Shown: positions 32,000 to 38,355 of the stretch, piece by piece
Position numbering within the stretch: the first letter of the stretch is position 1
Layout: the number at the start of each line of letters is the position of its first letter
Assembly (NCBI GenBank): GCA_002839805.1
Contig: PGYT01000014.1
Span: forward strand, 5,208 to 56,622
Direction of reading: 5' to 3'
Length of the DNA stretch: 51,415 nt
DNA from: Ignavibacteriae bacterium HGW-Ignavibacteriae-2
GTDB lineage: Bacteria > Bacteroidota > Ignavibacteria > Ignavibacteriales > Melioribacteraceae
The notes under the pieces: generated by a model
What the model was told of the DNA's origin: nothing
Seen by the model: the letters and a program-made list of their open reading frames with translations, nothing else
Databases searched by the model: none
Made by a program: the position numbers and the translations under genes

Positions 32000-33340
32000 A
32001 TGGGTAAAATTACTCATGTAGTAAAACGTAACGGCGCAATTGTGGAGTTCAACCCACAGAGGATAAGCAACGCGATATACCGGGCCGCAGTTTCAGTAGG
32101 CGGACGAGATAAAGAAACCGCAGACAAGCTGGGCAAACAGGTAGAAGAAGTAATTGAGCAGACCTTTGATGATGGATATAAACTGCATATTGAGGAGATT
32201 CAGGATATTGTTGAAAAGGTGTTAATTGAAAACGGTCACGCTAAAGTTGCTAAAGAGTATATATTGTACCGTGATGAGCAGATTAAAAAAAGAACATTAA
32301 ATGCAAGTCAGGGAACCCGTCCCAAAGAAAATATTCCCTGGTCTAAAATTTGGCATATTTTGGACTGGTCCGTTTCTAATAACCTTCACTCAATACCTAG
32401 TTTAAATGAAAAAATTGATCATAACGAATTTGCCGATATTGTTCGTATATCAGAAAAATTATACGATCATGATCTGGATCAGTCCGCAAAATTGATTACC
32501 GATAAAGCGAATAGTTTAAAAATGGTAATGATTACGGGCCCTTCCTCTTCAGGTAAAACAACTACAACATACAGGATGGAAGAGAGATTAAAATCGAAAG
32601 GAATGAGTTTTGTCCCACTTGTAGTTGATCATTATTTTTTTGATCTTGAACTTCACCCTAAAGATGAATTTGGCGATTACGATTTCGAAACTCCTCAAGC
32701 GCTCGATCTGGATTTAATAAACGAACATCTCCATTTACTTAGCGAAGGAAAAGAAGTAAAAATTCCTTTTTACGATTTTAAAGAGGGCAAAAGATATCCG
32801 AATCATACAAAAATGCAATTAAAAGAAGGGCAAATTCTTTTAATAGACAGCTTGCACGCACTCTATCCAAAATTTAGCGAAGGAATTGATACCACTCTCA
32901 CATTTAAAGTTTATCTCGAACCACTTATACAAATGAAAGGTCCTGAAAACCAATACATTCAATGGACAGACTTACGTTTAATTAGAAGAATGCTCCGCGA
33001 TTCTGTTCAACGCGCATATAATCCCCAGCAAACATTGGAGCACTGGCATTATGTCAGATCAAGCGAATTGAGGCATATTATTCCTTACAGCAATAACGCG
33101 GATTATATTATTAGCAGCGGCATGCCATATGAAATTGCACTTTACAGACCAATGCTTATTGATAAATTTGCCGAATGGGTAAAACTTTATAGAAACAACC
33201 CATTACGTTTGGACGCATTTACCCGCGCGGAAAGGGTATTTAAGATGCTTGATGCAGTCAGAGGGGTAGAGGATAATTCCGCTGTGCCAACAAATTCAGT
33301 TCTAAGAGAATTTATAGGGGGCAGTGTTTATAAATATTAA
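32000..33340 (+). CDS. ATP-cone domain fused to uridine-kinase-like P-loop kinase
   Basis: The 446-aa protein starts with an ATP-cone (1-98: THVVKRNGAIVEFNPQRISNAIYRAA, VLIENGHAKVAKEYILYRDEQI), the nucleotide-sensing domain best known from NrdR and class I and III ribonucleotide reductases. The C-terminal part is a kinase of the uridine kinase/phosphoribulokinase fold with P-loop GPSSSGKTT at 180-188, VVDHYFFDLELHPKDEFGDYDFETPQALDLDL-type substrate segment (starting near 209) and ILLIDSLHALYP. The ATG has GGGGTG upstream. The fusion suggests allosteric control by ATP or dATP. The true substrate is not known. Confidence 0.85.
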   Translation: MGKITHVVKRNGAIVEFNPQRISNAIYRAAVSVGGRDKETADKLGKQVEEVIEQTFDDGYKLHIEEIQDIVEKVLIENGHAKVAKEYILYRDEQIKKRTLNASQGTRPKENIPWSKIWHILDWSVSNNLHSIPSLNEKIDHNEFADIVRISEKLYDHDLDQSAKLITDKANSLKMVMITGPSSSGKTTTTYRMEERLKSKGMSFVPLVVDHYFFDLELHPKDEFGDYDFETPQALDLDLINEHLHLLSEGKEVKIPFYDFKEGKRYPNHTKMQLKEGQILLIDSLHALYPKFSEGIDTTLTFKVYLEPLIQMKGPENQYIQWTDLRLIRRMLRDSVQRAYNPQQTLEHWHYVRSSELRHIIPYSNNADYIISSGMPYEIALYRPMLIDKFAEWVKLYRNNPLRLDAFTRAERVFKMLDAVRGVEDNSAVPTNSVLREFIGGSVYKY

Positions 33341-33499: not shown

Positions 33500-35197
33500 T
33501 TATATGATTTTTCTATTTCCGATAATATATTCGTATGGAATAATAATTTCAAATTTTGTTCCCTCACCTAATCGGCTTTGCACAGAAATTTCACCTCCCA
33601 GTAATTTTACGAATTCTTTGCAAATTGCAAGTCCTAACCCACTTCCATATTCACCGGATTTTTCTTCTTTCAAAGAAATAAACGGAGTGAAAATATTGCG
33701 CATTTTATTATCCGGCATCCCACTGCCCGTATCTTTAACGGTGGTCTCTAGAGCATATTTATGCTCACCCAGAATTTTTGTTTTAGCTGAAATTGTAATT
33801 ATGCCTTTATGGGTAAATTTAATCGCGTTACCTATCAAATTTATTAACACCTGCTTGTATTTAGTCCCATCCGAATACACAATATTTTGGGTTATGTCTT
33901 CTGTTGAAAGAACTATTGTATTGTTTTTCATTTCAGCCAGAGGAGTCATCAGTTTAATAGTCTCTTGAAGAAGTTCCGTCAAATTGAACGGTTCTTTTTC
34001 TGCCTCAATTTTTCCAGTTTCAATTTTTGCAAACTCTATGAAATTTTCAATTGTATGAAGAAGGCTTTCTGCAGATATTTTTACTGATGATGCATAATCT
34101 TTAATATCATTTATAGTGTTCATCATATTTGTTTCAATCATTTCAAAAAACATAAGAATGGAATTCAAAGGAGTTTTTACTTCGTGATTTATCTTTGCAA
34201 GAAGTTGAATTTTTTGATTTTTTTCATCTAAAGCAAGGTGCGCATTCCGCTCACTAATTTTTGCTTCGTTAAACAACTTTTCGAGCGCCAAATTTTTTTC
34301 AATTTCATTTAATTTTTCTTTTGTCTCGTCTTTAATAATACACTGATAAGTCGAATTATACTCTTTACCACGAATCATCCTGGTAAAAATGCGTAAAAAC
34401 TTTCTTTCATCATTATTTAATAAAATTATTGATAAGCTATCGTCTATACCGGTTAAAATTCTTCGCTGAAAATTTTCTTTTTCAAAATGTTCTTCGTTTA
34501 TATAATCAAACAGAATTGTATTTTTTAAATCACCTGTTATTCCAAGTAAATCTAGCAAATAAGTGTTCGCTGTTATAATTCTTCCTTCCCCGTCTATTCT
34601 GCAAATTCCAATAGGGGCGTTCTCGAATAAAAATTTAATCTCATCCGTTTTTTTTGCATTTTCATCCCTCATTTTGTAAATAATAGCGCTGGTTACAACA
34701 CTCATAAAACTAACGAAACCAACAAATAGAACAATGGGCAAAAGATTGGGCAGGTGATATAGGCTGGAATCTCCATAAAATATAGATGTTGCGAAAAACA
34801 AATTATAATAGATGGATACAATAAGTTGCTGAGTAACTTCCCAGCTGAAAATAATTGCGATAGTAAAAATTAACAATGATAGAATTTGTGAGTTGATAAA
34901 AATTGTAGAAGGTATTTTGTAGATAGAAATAACAAATGAAGCTATTAAAGCCATTATTAAAATGTGACTTAAAATTGTCGATTTGGTTTTTCCTAATTTT
35001 CTAAAGGATAATGCAAAGATTACAAATGAAAGAACTGTAAACAATACTCTCGCAAAATATATATCTAATTGAAAGTCCTTAAAAAAGTATATTTCAAAAA
35101 TCAAAGACCAACTACCTGCGACAATTGAAATAGCGGCTACAATTTTCAGCGGCACTAATATTCCTTCCGATTCGAGTCTAAAACTTTTTTCTACCAT
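33500..35197 (-). CDS. Membrane-bound PAS sensor histidine kinase
   Basis: The 565-aa protein begins with about six membrane helices (16-180, MASE-like but unassigned). A PAS domain follows at about 185-290 (FENAPIGICRIDGEGRIITAN). A coiled region precedes HisKA with H338 in LLAKINHEVKTPLNSIL and the HATPase_c domain (N-box NLIGNAIKFTHKG, DTGSGMP, YGSGLGLAICKEFVKLLGGE). No receiver domain or response regulator is adjacent. The ATG has TTGGA nine bases upstream. Plus-strand neighbours point away, so it forms its own unit. Confidence 0.92.
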   Translation of the reverse strand: MVEKSFRLESEGILVPLKIVAAISIVAGSWSLIFEIYFFKDFQLDIYFARVLFTVLSFVIFALSFRKLGKTKSTILSHILIMALIASFVISIYKIPSTIFINSQILSLLIFTIAIIFSWEVTQQLIVSIYYNLFFATSIFYGDSSLYHLPNLLPIVLFVGFVSFMSVVTSAIIYKMRDENAKKTDEIKFLFENAPIGICRIDGEGRIITANTYLLDLLGITGDLKNTILFDYINEEHFEKENFQRRILTGIDDSLSIILLNNDERKFLRIFTRMIRGKEYNSTYQCIIKDETKEKLNEIEKNLALEKLFNEAKISERNAHLALDEKNQKIQLLAKINHEVKTPLNSILMFFEMIETNMMNTINDIKDYASSVKISAESLLHTIENFIEFAKIETGKIEAEKEPFNLTELLQETIKLMTPLAEMKNNTIVLSTEDITQNIVYSDGTKYKQVLINLIGNAIKFTHKGIITISAKTKILGEHKYALETTVKDTGSGMPDNKMRNIFTPFISLKEEKSGEYGSGLGLAICKEFVKLLGGEISVQSRLGEGTKFEIIIPYEYIIGNRKII

Positions 35198-35375
35198 ATA
35201 AAATCCAAATAATTTTTATATATATTATAAATATAAACTAAGAAATGTTTTAACAATATTAATTGATAAAGATAATGGCAGGGATAGATTATTTAATAAT
35301 TGCTGTATCAGATAGTATTTTTGAGTGAATTTAAGTGTTTTGTTAAATAATAATTTTTGTCCGAAGTTAAGTTTA

Positions 35376-35549
35376 TTATTTTTTTTGCCTTTTCCTTTTT
35401 TCCAATTCTTTAATCCGTTCTTCGGCCGGAATTGCAAATTCAAATCTGTTATGTAAAACACAGCCTTTACGTCCCGGCACACAGTCTGTTTTCAGCCTGA
35501 GGCAGAAATTGTCTTTTATATTTAAATGCGGGCAGGAGAACGAATTCAT
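35376..35549 (-). CDS. Small cysteine-rich protein, 57 aa
   Basis: The frame opens with ATG at 35549 and ends with TAA at 35376. Four Cys (C6, C16, C23, C30) frame a pattern CPHLN-x5-CLRLKTDCVPGRKGCVL, then a Pro/Glu start and a basic coiled tail (PAEERIKELEKRKRQKK). This looks like a small zinc- or iron-binding protein. I do not recognise a named family. The overlapping 85-codon frame (35225-35482) on the same strand is less protein-like, so I reject it as the product. It is upstream of the sensor kinase and downstream of the ArsC-like gene. Confidence 0.68.
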   Translation of the reverse strand: MNSFSCPHLNIKDNFCLRLKTDCVPGRKGCVLHNRFEFAIPAEERIKELEKRKRQKK

Positions 35550-35571: not shown

Positions 35572-35925
35572 TTAATCAAATAATTCAAGTATTTTTTCCA
35601 CTGGTCTGCCTAAAATAGCTTTTTCTCCTTTTTCTACAATAGGTCTTTGAATTAAATTATGATCGGAAATCATGAACTCCAGGATTTGATTTTCGCTATA
35701 TTTCTTGTTTTTAATGTCTAATTGTTTGAAAGCTTCTTCATTTTTTCTAAGAAGCTCACTTGGTTTCATATTCATTTTTTTAAGAAGGGTATTAAGTTTA
35801 TTTTTTGAAAAAGGTTTTATATAGTAGTTTATCCTATCGAAACTATAACCCTTTTCTTGAAGGAGTTTTATCGTTTTCCTACAGGTGGTGCAGGTAGGTT
35901 TTTCGTATACTGTAATTTTTTCCAT
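35572..35925 (-). CDS. ArsC/Spx-family thioredoxin-fold protein
   Basis: The 117-aa protein shows YEKPTCTTCRKTIKLLQEKG near the N-terminus, with Cys-x-x-Cys (C12, C15), and IQRPIVEKGEKAILGRP in the middle, the Arg-Pro loop of the arsenate reductase/Spx family. ArsC enzymes use one N-terminal Cys and glutaredoxin; Spx proteins use CxxC as a redox switch on RNA polymerase. This sequence has the CxxC of Spx but ordinary ArsC loops, so either reductase or redox role is possible. An extended frame to 36030 is not favoured; ATG 35925 gives the family-length N-terminus, with GGA about nine bases upstream. Confidence 0.85.
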   Translation of the reverse strand: MEKITVYEKPTCTTCRKTIKLLQEKGYSFDRINYYIKPFSKNKLNTLLKKMNMKPSELLRKNEEAFKQLDIKNKKYSENQILEFMISDHNLIQRPIVEKGEKAILGRPVEKILELFD

Positions 35926-36186: not shown

Positions 36187-38355
36187 ATGAACATTCCATT
36201 ACAGATAGCAAAAGAAATTGATTTAAAAGAAAAGCAAGTGCTTGCAACAATTGCTTTGTTAAATGAAGGATCTACAATCCCATTTTTAGCAAGATACAGA
36301 AAAGAACATACGGGCGGTTTGGATGAGGATCAATTAAGAATAATTGAGGACAGGTTAAATTATCTTACGTTATTGGAAGAACGCAAAGTTACAGTATTAA
36401 GCAGTATTGAAGAGCAGGGTAAATTAACAGATGAATTAAAAGAAAAAATACTTGCCGCTTTAAAATTGCAGGAAGTAGAGGATCTATATTTGCCTTATAA
36501 ACCGAAACGCAAAACACGCGGTACAATTGCAAAAGCGAAAGGTTTGGAACCGCTGGCACTATTTATTCTCGATAATCCCAACTTTATTGGAAATTTTGAG
36601 GACGAGTTGGCAAAATATATTGATCCTGAAAAAGGCGTAAATTCTCTTGAAGAAGCTTTACAGGGAGCTAAAGATATTATTGCTGAAATGATAAGCGACG
36701 ATGCCGATGTAAGAAAAGTGGTTCGTGAAAACCTGCTTGAAAAATCAGTAGTCTCTTCTCAAAAATCAAATCCCAAAAAAGAGGATTTAGCGCCGAAAGC
36801 AAAAGATGTTTATGAAGTTTATCATGATTTTAAGATTGAAATCACAAAAATTAAAGCCTACCAGCTGCTTGCTTTAAATAGGGGAGAGCGAGAAAAATTC
36901 TTAAAAGTATCTTTCGGATTCGATAAAGACGAAATATTAAAAGATATTTTTAAACAATTCTTCGTTTATAAGGATTCGGCTTTTTTAGAAATTTTGGAAT
37001 CAGTTGTTGATGATTCGTTTGCAAGGTTAATTTATCCTTCAATTGAGCGTGAAATCAGAAATTATTTAACTGAAATTGCCGATGTACACGCAATAGAAAT
37101 ATTTGCCTCAAATCTAAAACAATTATTGCTTCAACCTCCTATTGCTGATACAATGATTATGGGTATTGACCCAGGCTTTTATTCGGGATCTAAAATTGCC
37201 GTAATCGATCCAACAGGCAAATATATTGACGGCTCAACAATGTATCCACACCCCCCTCAAAGTAAAGTTGTGGAATCAAAAAAAATTCTTCTGGACTTTA
37301 TTAAAAAATATAACGTTAGTTTAATTGCAATTGGCAATGGAACGGCAAGTAGAGAAACAGAGTTTTTAATTGCCGAATTGATAAAAGAAAATGATCTTAA
37401 ATGTAATTATCTGATTATAAATGAAGCGGGTGCTTCGGTTTATTCGGCCTCTGCAATTGCCAAGCAGGAATTTCCTGATCTGGAGGCAAGTCAGCGAGGC
37501 AATATATCGATCGCTCGCCGTGTGCTCGATCCTTTGGCCGAATTAGTTAAAATTGATCCCAAATCTATAGGAGTCGGGTTATATCAGCACGATGTTGATC
37601 AGAAATTACTTGTTAAAAAACTTGATGATGTGGTTGTAAGCTGCGTAAACTATGTGGGTGTAGACGCCAATACAGCTTCGGCTTCTCTTTTAACTTACGT
37701 CTCCGGAATGAATAAAAGAATTGCCAATAACTTTATAAAATATCGTGAAACTCACGGCAAATTTACAAACAGAAAAGAATTTTTGGAAGTTACGGGTGTT
37801 GGTGAAAAATTGTTTGAACAATGCGCGGGATTTTTAAAAATAAATGATGGAGATAATCCGCTCGACAATACTTTTATTCATCCAGAGTCTTATAAGGCTA
37901 CAGAGGAACTGCTTAACATGTGCAATATTCCTCTTTATGCCGTAAATAAATCGGGCAATCTTGTAAGTTTGTTCGCAAGTCAAAAAGGGCCGGAAAAAAT
38001 TTCAGAAGAAATTGGTATAGGCGAACCGACGTTAATGGACATTATAGAAAATTTAAAAAAACCGGGACGCGACCCACGCGAAGAAATGCCCAAACCTATA
38101 CTTAGAAGCGATGTATTGAAAATGGAGGATCTGCAGATTGGAATGACCCTGAAAGGAACTGTGCGGAACGTTGTTGATTTCGGAGCATTTGTAGATATTG
38201 GAGTAAAACAGGATGGTCTCTTGCATATCTCTCAGATAGCGGACAAATACATTAAAAATCCATTGGAAGTATTAAATGTTGGCGACATTATTGATGTTAA
38301 GATTACCGGCGTAGATATAGAAAAGGGCAGAATTTCTCTCAGTATGCGCAAATAA
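36187..38355 (+). CDS. tex: Tex-family RNA-binding transcription accessory protein
   Basis: The 722-aa protein matches Tex in order. N-terminal helical domain (PFLARYRKEHTGGLDEDQL, PYKPKRKTRGTIAKAKGLEPLA). YqgF-like RNase H-fold domain from about 322 (MGIDPGFYSGSKIAVIDPTG, FPDLEASQRGNISIARRVLDPLAELVKIDPKSIGVGLYQHDV region). HhH motifs (TGVGEKLFEQCAGFL). C-terminal S1 RNA-binding domain at about 645-720 (GMTLKGTVRNVVDFGAFVDIG, ISLSMRK end). Tex associates with RNA polymerase and affects transcript elongation and toxin genes in other species. A hairpin 11 bp after the stop is a likely terminator. Confidence 0.95.
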   Translation: MNIPLQIAKEIDLKEKQVLATIALLNEGSTIPFLARYRKEHTGGLDEDQLRIIEDRLNYLTLLEERKVTVLSSIEEQGKLTDELKEKILAALKLQEVEDLYLPYKPKRKTRGTIAKAKGLEPLALFILDNPNFIGNFEDELAKYIDPEKGVNSLEEALQGAKDIIAEMISDDADVRKVVRENLLEKSVVSSQKSNPKKEDLAPKAKDVYEVYHDFKIEITKIKAYQLLALNRGEREKFLKVSFGFDKDEILKDIFKQFFVYKDSAFLEILESVVDDSFARLIYPSIEREIRNYLTEIADVHAIEIFASNLKQLLLQPPIADTMIMGIDPGFYSGSKIAVIDPTGKYIDGSTMYPHPPQSKVVESKKILLDFIKKYNVSLIAIGNGTASRETEFLIAELIKENDLKCNYLIINEAGASVYSASAIAKQEFPDLEASQRGNISIARRVLDPLAELVKIDPKSIGVGLYQHDVDQKLLVKKLDDVVVSCVNYVGVDANTASASLLTYVSGMNKRIANNFIKYRETHGKFTNRKEFLEVTGVGEKLFEQCAGFLKINDGDNPLDNTFIHPESYKATEELLNMCNIPLYAVNKSGNLVSLFASQKGPEKISEEIGIGEPTLMDIIENLKKPGRDPREEMPKPILRSDVLKMEDLQIGMTLKGTVRNVVDFGAFVDIGVKQDGLLHISQIADKYIKNPLEVLNVGDIIDVKITGVDIEKGRISLSMRK

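What the first reader, a model, noticed from the sequence alone, without database searches (positions are those of the whole stretch)
35376..35549. Compact cysteine-rich 57-aa protein
Four Cys in an ordered pattern (CPHLN, CLRLKTDC, GC) and a basic coiled tail give a strong protein-like frame that is short enough to be missed. It may be a small metal-binding protein of the group.
Basis: seen in the sequence. Interest (0 to 1): 0.5.

Follow-up and report, generated by a model that had tools for sequence, protein, structure and literature searches.

The report
Small cysteine protein beside hemerythrin genes
A tiny, unnamed bacterial protein with four conserved cysteines is a genuine gene that in several unrelated bacteria sits next to, and once in one reading frame with, iron-containing (hemerythrin-type) proteins that deal with oxygen and nitric oxide, so it may be their small helper.

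Summary
The 57-aa frame is real. It lies on the minus strand (35376-35549), 22 bp behind a Spx/ArsC-like gene, and belongs to a family without a meaningful match in Pfam, NCBIfam or PDB sequences. Homologues: window's order 23 of 164 genomes, a verrucomicrobial class 16 of 236, Planctomycetota 22 of 294, Lindowbacteria phylum 2 of 3. Four cysteines are invariant in 64 of 64 aligned sequences; dN/dS against the sister species is 0.13.

Neighbourhoods point to hemerythrin-like diiron proteins: one within 1.5 kb in 11 of 54 genomes, 0.22 expected, including the sister species, overlapping genes and one continuous small-protein-hemerythrin frame. Rubrerythrin, haem peroxidase, flavodiiron, Ric, nosZ and iron-sulphur assembly genes also occur. 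The window itself, and 67 of 80 contexts, have no hemerythrin within 1.5 kb. I propose a Cys4 redox or iron relay for diiron proteins in oxidative/nitrosative stress, working like the cysteine domain of YtfE/Ric but not a member of that family. The link is moderately supported; the mechanism is inferred.

The parts
35376..35549 (-). 57-aa Cys4 protein (core SFxCPHx7CxRLxxxCxPGRxGCVLxxxxxF, then a basic charged tail)
   Evidence: translation; homologues and profiles; dN/dS; Cys invariant in 64 of 64 aligned
35572..35925 (-). Spx/ArsC-like thioredoxin-fold protein with a CxxC motif, 22 bp upstream, same strand; co-transcription is inferred; same order in the sister species
   Evidence: Pfam ArsC 4.6e-19; NCBIfam TIGR01617 75.8 bits, cut-off 75.05; L066 = G001
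35198..35375 (.). stretch between the small gene and the histidine kinase; the sister species has a 136-aa bacteriohemerythrin gene right behind the small gene, the window has none
   Evidence: L066:7415-7825 Pfam Hemerythrin 1.4e-14; three minus-strand frames of the stretch show none, and the local hemerythrin profile finds none in the window

Best explanation
It is a stand-alone Cys4 protein of an undescribed, multi-phylum family. Its four invariant cysteines most likely hold a metal (Fe(Cys)4, an iron-sulphur cluster, or Zn) or act as a thiol relay. It works as a small helper of hemerythrin-like non-haem diiron proteins, and of comparable O2/peroxide/NO-handling proteins (Ric/ScdA, rubrerythrin, flavodiiron), in oxidative and nitrosative stress, by passing electrons or iron to the diiron site. 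Shown: the gene is real, conserved and under purifying selection; the cysteines are invariant in the set aligned; its genes recur next to, overlapping, or in one frame with hemerythrin genes. Inferred: that this gene company reflects a working partnership. Hypothesis only: metal content, and electron versus iron delivery.
For: Hemerythrin within 1.5 kb in 11 of 54 positive genomes, 0.22 expected from hemerythrin copy number; Poisson about 4e-9 if I collapse the 11 to 7 lineages. The 54 were picked from about 70 positive genomes known by then; of the 16 left out, two (G966 = L145, G993 = L152) also have it. Distance control, 57 contexts with longer flanks: 8 hemerythrin frames at 7 loci within 1.5 kb (4.7 per 100 kb), 3 at 1.5-3 kb (1.9), 1 at 3-8 kb (0.26). 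Sister species: Spx/ArsC - small - bacteriohemerythrin. Overlaps: L036 4 bp, L041 = L111 14 bp and L152 one base (Pfam). One 243-aa frame with the Cys4 core first and Pfam Hemerythrin at 106-220 (L117). Ric (ScdA_N + hemerythrin) beside L029 and L149, 2.2 kb from L025. Flavodiiron-type protein upstream, and ferredoxin in the same frame, in L138. Rubrerythrin near L160 and L078 (L166 by eye). Haem peroxidase beside L075 and L137. Precedent: in YtfE the ScdA_N cysteine pair delivers electrons to the diiron centre and the physiological reductant is unknown (PMC9052748, passages).
Against: The window has no hemerythrin neighbour; 67 of 80 contexts, one of them counted twice (L035 = L116), have none within 1.5 kb. 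Six of the 13 loci that do are one Planctomycetota group. The idea came partly from the same loci; the local hemerythrin profile was seeded with seven sequences from six such loci; the observed column was entered by hand and takes one locus per genome though four genomes have two. In one search the 22 short-flank Planctomycetota loci fed only the innermost bin, which inflates that contrast (hence). Five of 54 positive genomes have no hemerythrin. No association with nosZ in the relatives (9 of 18 with the gene, 35 of 79 without); weak with DUF2249 (13 of 24 vs 11 of 40). RIC genes are said not to be usually clustered with stress genes (PMC9268430, passage). The L117 and L138 frames have an internal Met before the second domain, so fusion is not certain. 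No metal, expression or usable structure.
Confidence: 0.43

Rival explanations
1. An iron or iron-sulphur donor, carrier or repair factor for damaged iron proteins, working beside Ric/ScdA or cluster-assembly proteins rather than as an electron carrier.
For: Ric beside L029 and L149, near in L025. Iron-sulphur assembly genes near some loci: Mrp-type cluster carrier in L065 and L049, NifU/Nfu-type in L065, cysteine desulfurase directly upstream in L146, itself a weak match at a contig end. RICs are reported to donate iron for cluster assembly (PMC9268430, passages).
Against: These genes are on the other strand or over 1 kb away in L065 and L049, and were identified at only three loci (I did not screen the others for them). 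Another study saw iron donation by YtfE only when its centre was damaged (PMC9052748, passages).
Confidence: 0.2
2. A zinc-bound structural or regulatory small protein of redox and NO-stress operons: the cysteines hold Zn and release it, or form disulphides, when hit by NO or peroxide, so the protein is a sensor or adaptor.
For: Cys4 without a known redox-cofactor motif; regulators nearby: Rrf2 in L036 and L025 and L149 (by eye), Crp/Fnr-type in L032, Fur-type in L079, and the Spx/ArsC-like gene in the window.
Against: Regulators at only a few loci; no known DNA-binding family matched; the continuous frames are with hemerythrin and ferredoxin domains.
Confidence: 0.18
3. A copper chaperone or assembly factor for haem-copper NO/O2 reductases and nitrous-oxide reductase.
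For: SCO1-type genes near L072, L026-L028, L042, L047 and L034 (there with a CusF domain), a divergent COX1-family gene (L026-L028, L042, L047) and Sec-type nosZ (L034).
Against: My SCO, COX1 and NosZ references found nothing near most other loci, and nosZ presence does not track the gene. The Planctomycetota arrangement is with DUF488 and hemerythrin.
Confidence: 0.1
4. A chance or non-functional open frame.
For: Short; no match in Pfam, NCBIfam or PDB sequences.
Against: Cross-phylum conservation, low dN/dS, invariant cysteines, comparable starts, gene order kept in the sister species.
Confidence: 0.01

Closest known systems
RIC / YtfE / ScdA (ScdA_N PF04405 + hemerythrin PF01814)
   Same: A cysteine-bearing N-terminal part serves a hemerythrin-like diiron part; NO/oxidative-stress setting; in L117 the Cys4 core and a hemerythrin domain share one frame.
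   Different: No ScdA_N match and no vicinal CC motif; four spaced cysteines instead of DfCCgG; mostly a separate gene.
Rubredoxin and the rubredoxin-like domain of rubrerythrin
   Same: Small Cys4 protein that could serve diiron peroxidases; rubrerythrin is near the small gene in L160 and L078.
   Different: No paired CxxC motifs (motif recalled); gaps between cysteines about 9-6-6, or 7-6-6 in the Planctomycetota type; no Pfam match.
Bacterial [4Fe-4S] ferredoxins
   Same: Small Cys-rich electron carriers; a ferredoxin domain follows the Cys4 core in the same frame in L138.
   Different: No CxxCxxC motif and no Fer4 match of the Cys4 part itself.

Membership tests
RIC / ScdA | ScdA_N domain with the DfCCgG motif | tested here: not met
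   No ScdA_N match among 42 members of A1 or 28 of A3; no vicinal CC in the rows shown; motif from PMC9268430, passages.
RIC / ScdA | hemerythrin-like diiron domain in the same protein | tested here: not met
   The window protein is 57 aa and has no Pfam match; one relative, L117, has a hemerythrin domain in the same frame.
Rubredoxin | two CxxC knuckles binding one iron | tested here: not met
   Cysteine spacing in A1 and A3; no Pfam rubredoxin match. The motif is recalled.
[4Fe-4S] ferredoxin | CxxCxxCx(n)C motif / Fer4 profile | tested here: not met
   No Fer4 match of the Cys4 proteins and no such spacing.
Small metal-binding protein (functional class) | bound metal ion or cluster | not testable with these tools
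   Four invariant Cys are compatible; no metal data.
Undescribed Cys4 family (this report) | C-x(7-9)-C-x(6-7)-C-x(6)-C core in a protein of roughly 50-90 aa | tested here: met
   64 of 64 aligned sequences keep the four Cys; the window has gaps 9-6-6. The degenerate G489 copy, not in that set, lacks the first and last Cys.

The most novel reading that the evidence does not exclude
The family is the missing dedicated redox (or iron) partner of hemerythrin-like and RIC diiron proteins: a portable Cys4 module, encoded apart or in one frame with its client, that plays the electron-delivery role performed in YtfE by the ScdA_N cysteines. It would be a new type of small electron carrier, with a cysteine spacing not in the libraries searched, shared by at least four phyla.
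Probability: 0.22. Interest if true: 0.7.

Novelty: new variant of a known kind. Interest (0 to 1): 0.5.

Why it matters
What reduces hemerythrin-like and RIC diiron proteins in the cell is open: the YtfE study calls its physiological reductant unknown (PMC9052748, passages). A small Cys4 protein encoded beside, and once in frame with, such proteins is a concrete, easily tested candidate. The family has no match in Pfam or NCBIfam, so its members may be missed or called hypothetical in annotation, and it bears on O2/NO tolerance.

Tried and rejected
nosZ / denitrification as the driver: nosZ lies by the small gene in L034, but across 97 relatives presence is unrelated (9 of 18 with the small gene, 35 of 79 without). 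A first try with PF18793 rang nowhere, not even in the 14 controls, and says nothing. DUF488-N3i: in 22 of 54 positive genomes, next to the small gene only in Planctomycetota, and near it in L034. Phage or plasmid origin: no hit in phages (one query), plasmids (two queries) or viral contigs. Fold: model uninformative, so no fold search. PDB by sequence: chance-level hits only. Literature: listings of nine searches showed no paper on this family; I read passages of two papers only, and the library is partial. Tree: the window protein groups with other Ignavibacteria-type sequences (0.95 for that group, inner nodes down to 0.00), so I claim no recent transfer (L020 was mislabelled there, its record is titled Bacteroidota). 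I had labelled proteins in L034, L049 and L120 'NnrS'; the L034 protein matches nothing in Pfam, NCBIfam or PDB sequences and the L049 one nothing in Pfam, so I dropped that label. The L025 protein matches NnrS weakly, below Pfam's cut-off. A draft statement that no iron-sulphur assembly genes lie near was wrong; some searches found some, and I moved a little weight to the iron-donor rival and lowered the main confidence from 0.45 to 0.43.

Rows: I treat as chance or degenerate G055, G328, G489 and G1046; the tallies quoted for searches are the tools' own and include such rows. In one search some matches are weak or have stops (second G974 match, G759, G966, G991). One search was given 54 of about 70 positive genomes; left out: G009, G015, G028, G097, G102, G106, G111, G466, G476, G481, G489, G499, G512, G966, G991, G993. 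The 64-sequence alignment holds A1 and A3 only; near-identical copies (L023, L024, L026, L028, L045) and members found later or only in part (among them L112-L115, L117-L120, L135, L145-L147, L150-L152 and L156-L173) are not in it.

Full report
What is there. The frame at 35376-35549 is on the minus strand and encodes 57 residues with Cys at 6, 16, 23 and 30 and a basic, charged tail. It starts 22 bp after a 117-aa Spx/ArsC-like gene (35572-35925, minus) whose protein matches Pfam ArsC (4.6e-19) and just passes the cut-off of NCBIfam's Spx/MgsR-type model. Downstream on the same strand is a PAS/histidine kinase (33500-35197); a divergent Tex gene begins at 36187. The window lies in contig C118 of a 4.16-Mb genome, G000. 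Two same-family contigs have the lengths of records titled Ignavibacteriales bacterium and Melioribacter roseus (G033:C8 and G047:C10 versus L024 and L023), so the window is most likely from the Ignavibacteria; that is inference.

It is a real gene. Related genomes: 18 of 97 after dropping one chance row. Scan of one genome per species: 30 loci, in records titled Verrucomicrobia/Opitutaceae, Bacteroidota, Ignavibacteriales, Melioribacter, Phycisphaeraceae, Kiritimatiellae and Lindowbacteria. Profile searches, counts as the tool gives them: 15 of 395 genomes of the phylum, one (G328) with stops inside; 16 of 236 of the class of an Opitutus record, one (G489) degenerate; 22 of 294 of the phylum of a Phycisphaeraceae record, some of them weak; 2 of 3 in the phylum of the Lindowbacteria record; with the broader profile 23 of 164 of the window's order, 20 of 109 at good quality, one match per genome, one of them (G1046) over 27 positions only. 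The gene is patchy but widespread. Nei-Gojobori comparisons of 16 pairs give dN/dS 0.13 with the sister species and 0 to 0.45 over the 14 pairs with a finite value. In the 64 sequences aligned, the four cysteines are in 64 of 64; P25 in 62, G29 in 61, S3 and L32 in 58, V31 in 56 and F38 in 53.

It belongs to no described family that I could find. No meaningful match in Pfam or NCBIfam for the window protein, for 42 members in Pfam or for 28 members in both libraries; PDB sequences gave chance-level hits; none in phages, plasmids or viral contigs. The AlphaFold model (29 sequences) has pLDDT 56.6 and pTM 0.30 and shows little but a C-terminal helix; I draw nothing from it.

Two main sequence types. 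The LKTDCVPGR type (window, Verrucomicrobia, Phycisphaeraceae, Lindowbacteria) and a SWxCPHQxxxxCxRLxxxCQP type of Planctomycetota, whose first cysteine gap is two residues shorter; diverged copies also occur in Ignavibacteria (L016-L018) and in another class of the phylum (L082-L084).

Gene neighbourhoods differ from lineage to lineage but share a theme. Planctomycetota, second type: a DUF488-N3i gene overlaps the start of the small gene by 4 bp at seven loci (L129, L131, L136, L143, L144, L145, L148; a remnant in L147), and a hemerythrin-domain gene follows the small gene at five of these seven and at L141; DsrE-like, ferredoxin and phosphatase-like genes are near some. L149 has Ric and, by eye, Rrf2 upstream; L138 has a flavodiiron-type protein upstream and a ferredoxin in the same frame as the Cys4 core. 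Phycisphaeraceae: L036 has Rrf2 and hemerythrin immediately upstream; L025 has Rrf2 and a weakly NnrS-like protein upstream and Ric 2.2 kb away. Verrucomicrobia: L029 has Ric upstream; L041 = L111 a hemerythrin gene whose start overlaps the small gene by 14 bp; L117 a 243-aa frame with the Cys4 core first and a hemerythrin domain at 106-220; L026-L028, L042 and L047 a divergent COX1-family, SCO1-type and cytochrome b/ferredoxin-type gene upstream (L038, at a contig edge, the last of these); L034 a Sec-type nosZ, SCO1/CusF and DUF488; L032 a DUF2249 gene, with a Crp/Fnr-type regulator next to it. Lindowbacteria phylum: L152 has hemerythrin directly upstream with a one-base overlap. The window's order: the sister species G001 has Spx/ArsC - small - bacteriohemerythrin; L072 has SCO1 upstream; L075 a haem peroxidase (KatG-like by eye); L160 and L166 a rubrerythrin with one gene between, L078 with three between (L166 by eye). 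Iron-sulphur assembly genes were identified near L065 (Mrp and NifU types), L049 (Mrp type) and L146 (cysteine desulfurase).

Is the hemerythrin link more than chance? In 54 positive genomes (of about 70 known) I counted hemerythrin genes and computed the number expected within 1.5 kb of the small gene, one locus per genome: 0.22. Observed: 11 genomes; treated as 7 lineages the Poisson tail is about 4e-9 (observed column entered by hand). A distance control over 80 fetched contexts (one counted twice) gave 18, 3 and 1 hemerythrin domain pieces at 0-1.5, 1.5-3 and 3-8 kb, at 13, 3 and 1 loci; but 22 short-flank Planctomycetota loci fed only the inner bin. Without them, in 57 contexts, 8, 3 and 1 frames, or 4.7, 1.9 and 0.26 per 100 kb, the inner ones at 7 loci. 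Caveats: the idea came partly from the same loci; the local profile was seeded from such loci (the Pfam count was not); six of 13 loci share one arrangement; 67 of 80 contexts, the window included, have no hemerythrin within 1.5 kb; 5 of 54 positive genomes have none at all.

What did not hold. nosZ presence is not correlated with the gene (9 of 18 vs 35 of 79). DUF2249 is only weakly enriched (13 of 24 vs 11 of 40). The theme is wider than denitrification: diiron, peroxide- and NO-handling, and at some loci iron-sulphur assembly.

Mechanism. In E. coli YtfE the vicinal cysteines of the N-terminal ScdA_N domain deliver electrons to the diiron centre of the hemerythrin domain, the physiological reductant is unknown, and one orthologue carries a ferredoxin-like domain (PMC9052748, passages). 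[quoted passage not shown] The L117 frame (Cys4 + hemerythrin), the L138 frame (Cys4 + ferredoxin) and the adjacent genes suggest by analogy that the Cys4 protein is a redox or iron relay for diiron proteins. Both frames have an internal Met before the second domain, so true fusion is likely but not proven. The protein is not a RIC, rubredoxin or ferredoxin by the features tested. Iron-sulphur donor, zinc adaptor and copper chaperone remain possible.

Verdict. Gene: certain for practical purposes. Role with hemerythrin-like/stress proteins: moderately supported, about 0.6 by my judgement. The specific electron-relay mechanism: about 0.2-0.3. Overall confidence in the stated explanation 0.43.

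Noticed in passing
window 32000-33340 +: A 446-aa protein joins an ATP-cone (Pfam 1.4e-23) to a phosphoribulokinase/uridine-kinase domain (1.8e-22): an ATP-binding module best matched by ribonucleotide reductases in front of a kinase domain; also in the sister species.
   Followed up: no
window 33500-35197 -: A PAS/histidine kinase stands where the sister species G001 has a bacteriohemerythrin gene next to the small gene.
   Followed up: partly
L147 (G974:C3:109840-110001): Second copy of the small gene behind a truncated DUF488 remnant, with stops in the matched frame by the tool's count: perhaps a decaying duplicate of the DUF488-small pair.
   Followed up: no
G019:C37:40939-45053, G042:C143:1421-5535, G021:C398:3322-7436: Two neighbouring NosZ-like frames of about 754-757 and 811-821 aa, only 32-39% identical to the verrucomicrobial NosZ query, in three same-family genomes.
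   Followed up: no
L026:65-5001, L042:183-4989, L047:183-4989: Divergent COX1-family subunit (far below the cut-off of NCBIfam's cytochrome oxidase models), SCO1-like protein and a cytochrome b/4Fe-4S/FlpD fusion in a row ahead of the small gene: possibly an unusual NO or O2 reductase module.
   Followed up: partly
L034:6946-8484, L049:3188-4648, L120:12830-14350: A protein of about 490-510 aa shared by three verrucomicrobial loci (68% identical) that carry the small gene or, in L120, its degenerate copy; the L034 copy has no match in Pfam, NCBIfam or PDB sequences, the L049 copy none in Pfam.
   Followed up: partly
L065:8230-8676, L039:5296-5799: A deaminase-type gene follows the small gene in two unrelated lineages (L039 by Pfam; L065 by eye); meaning unknown.
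   Followed up: no
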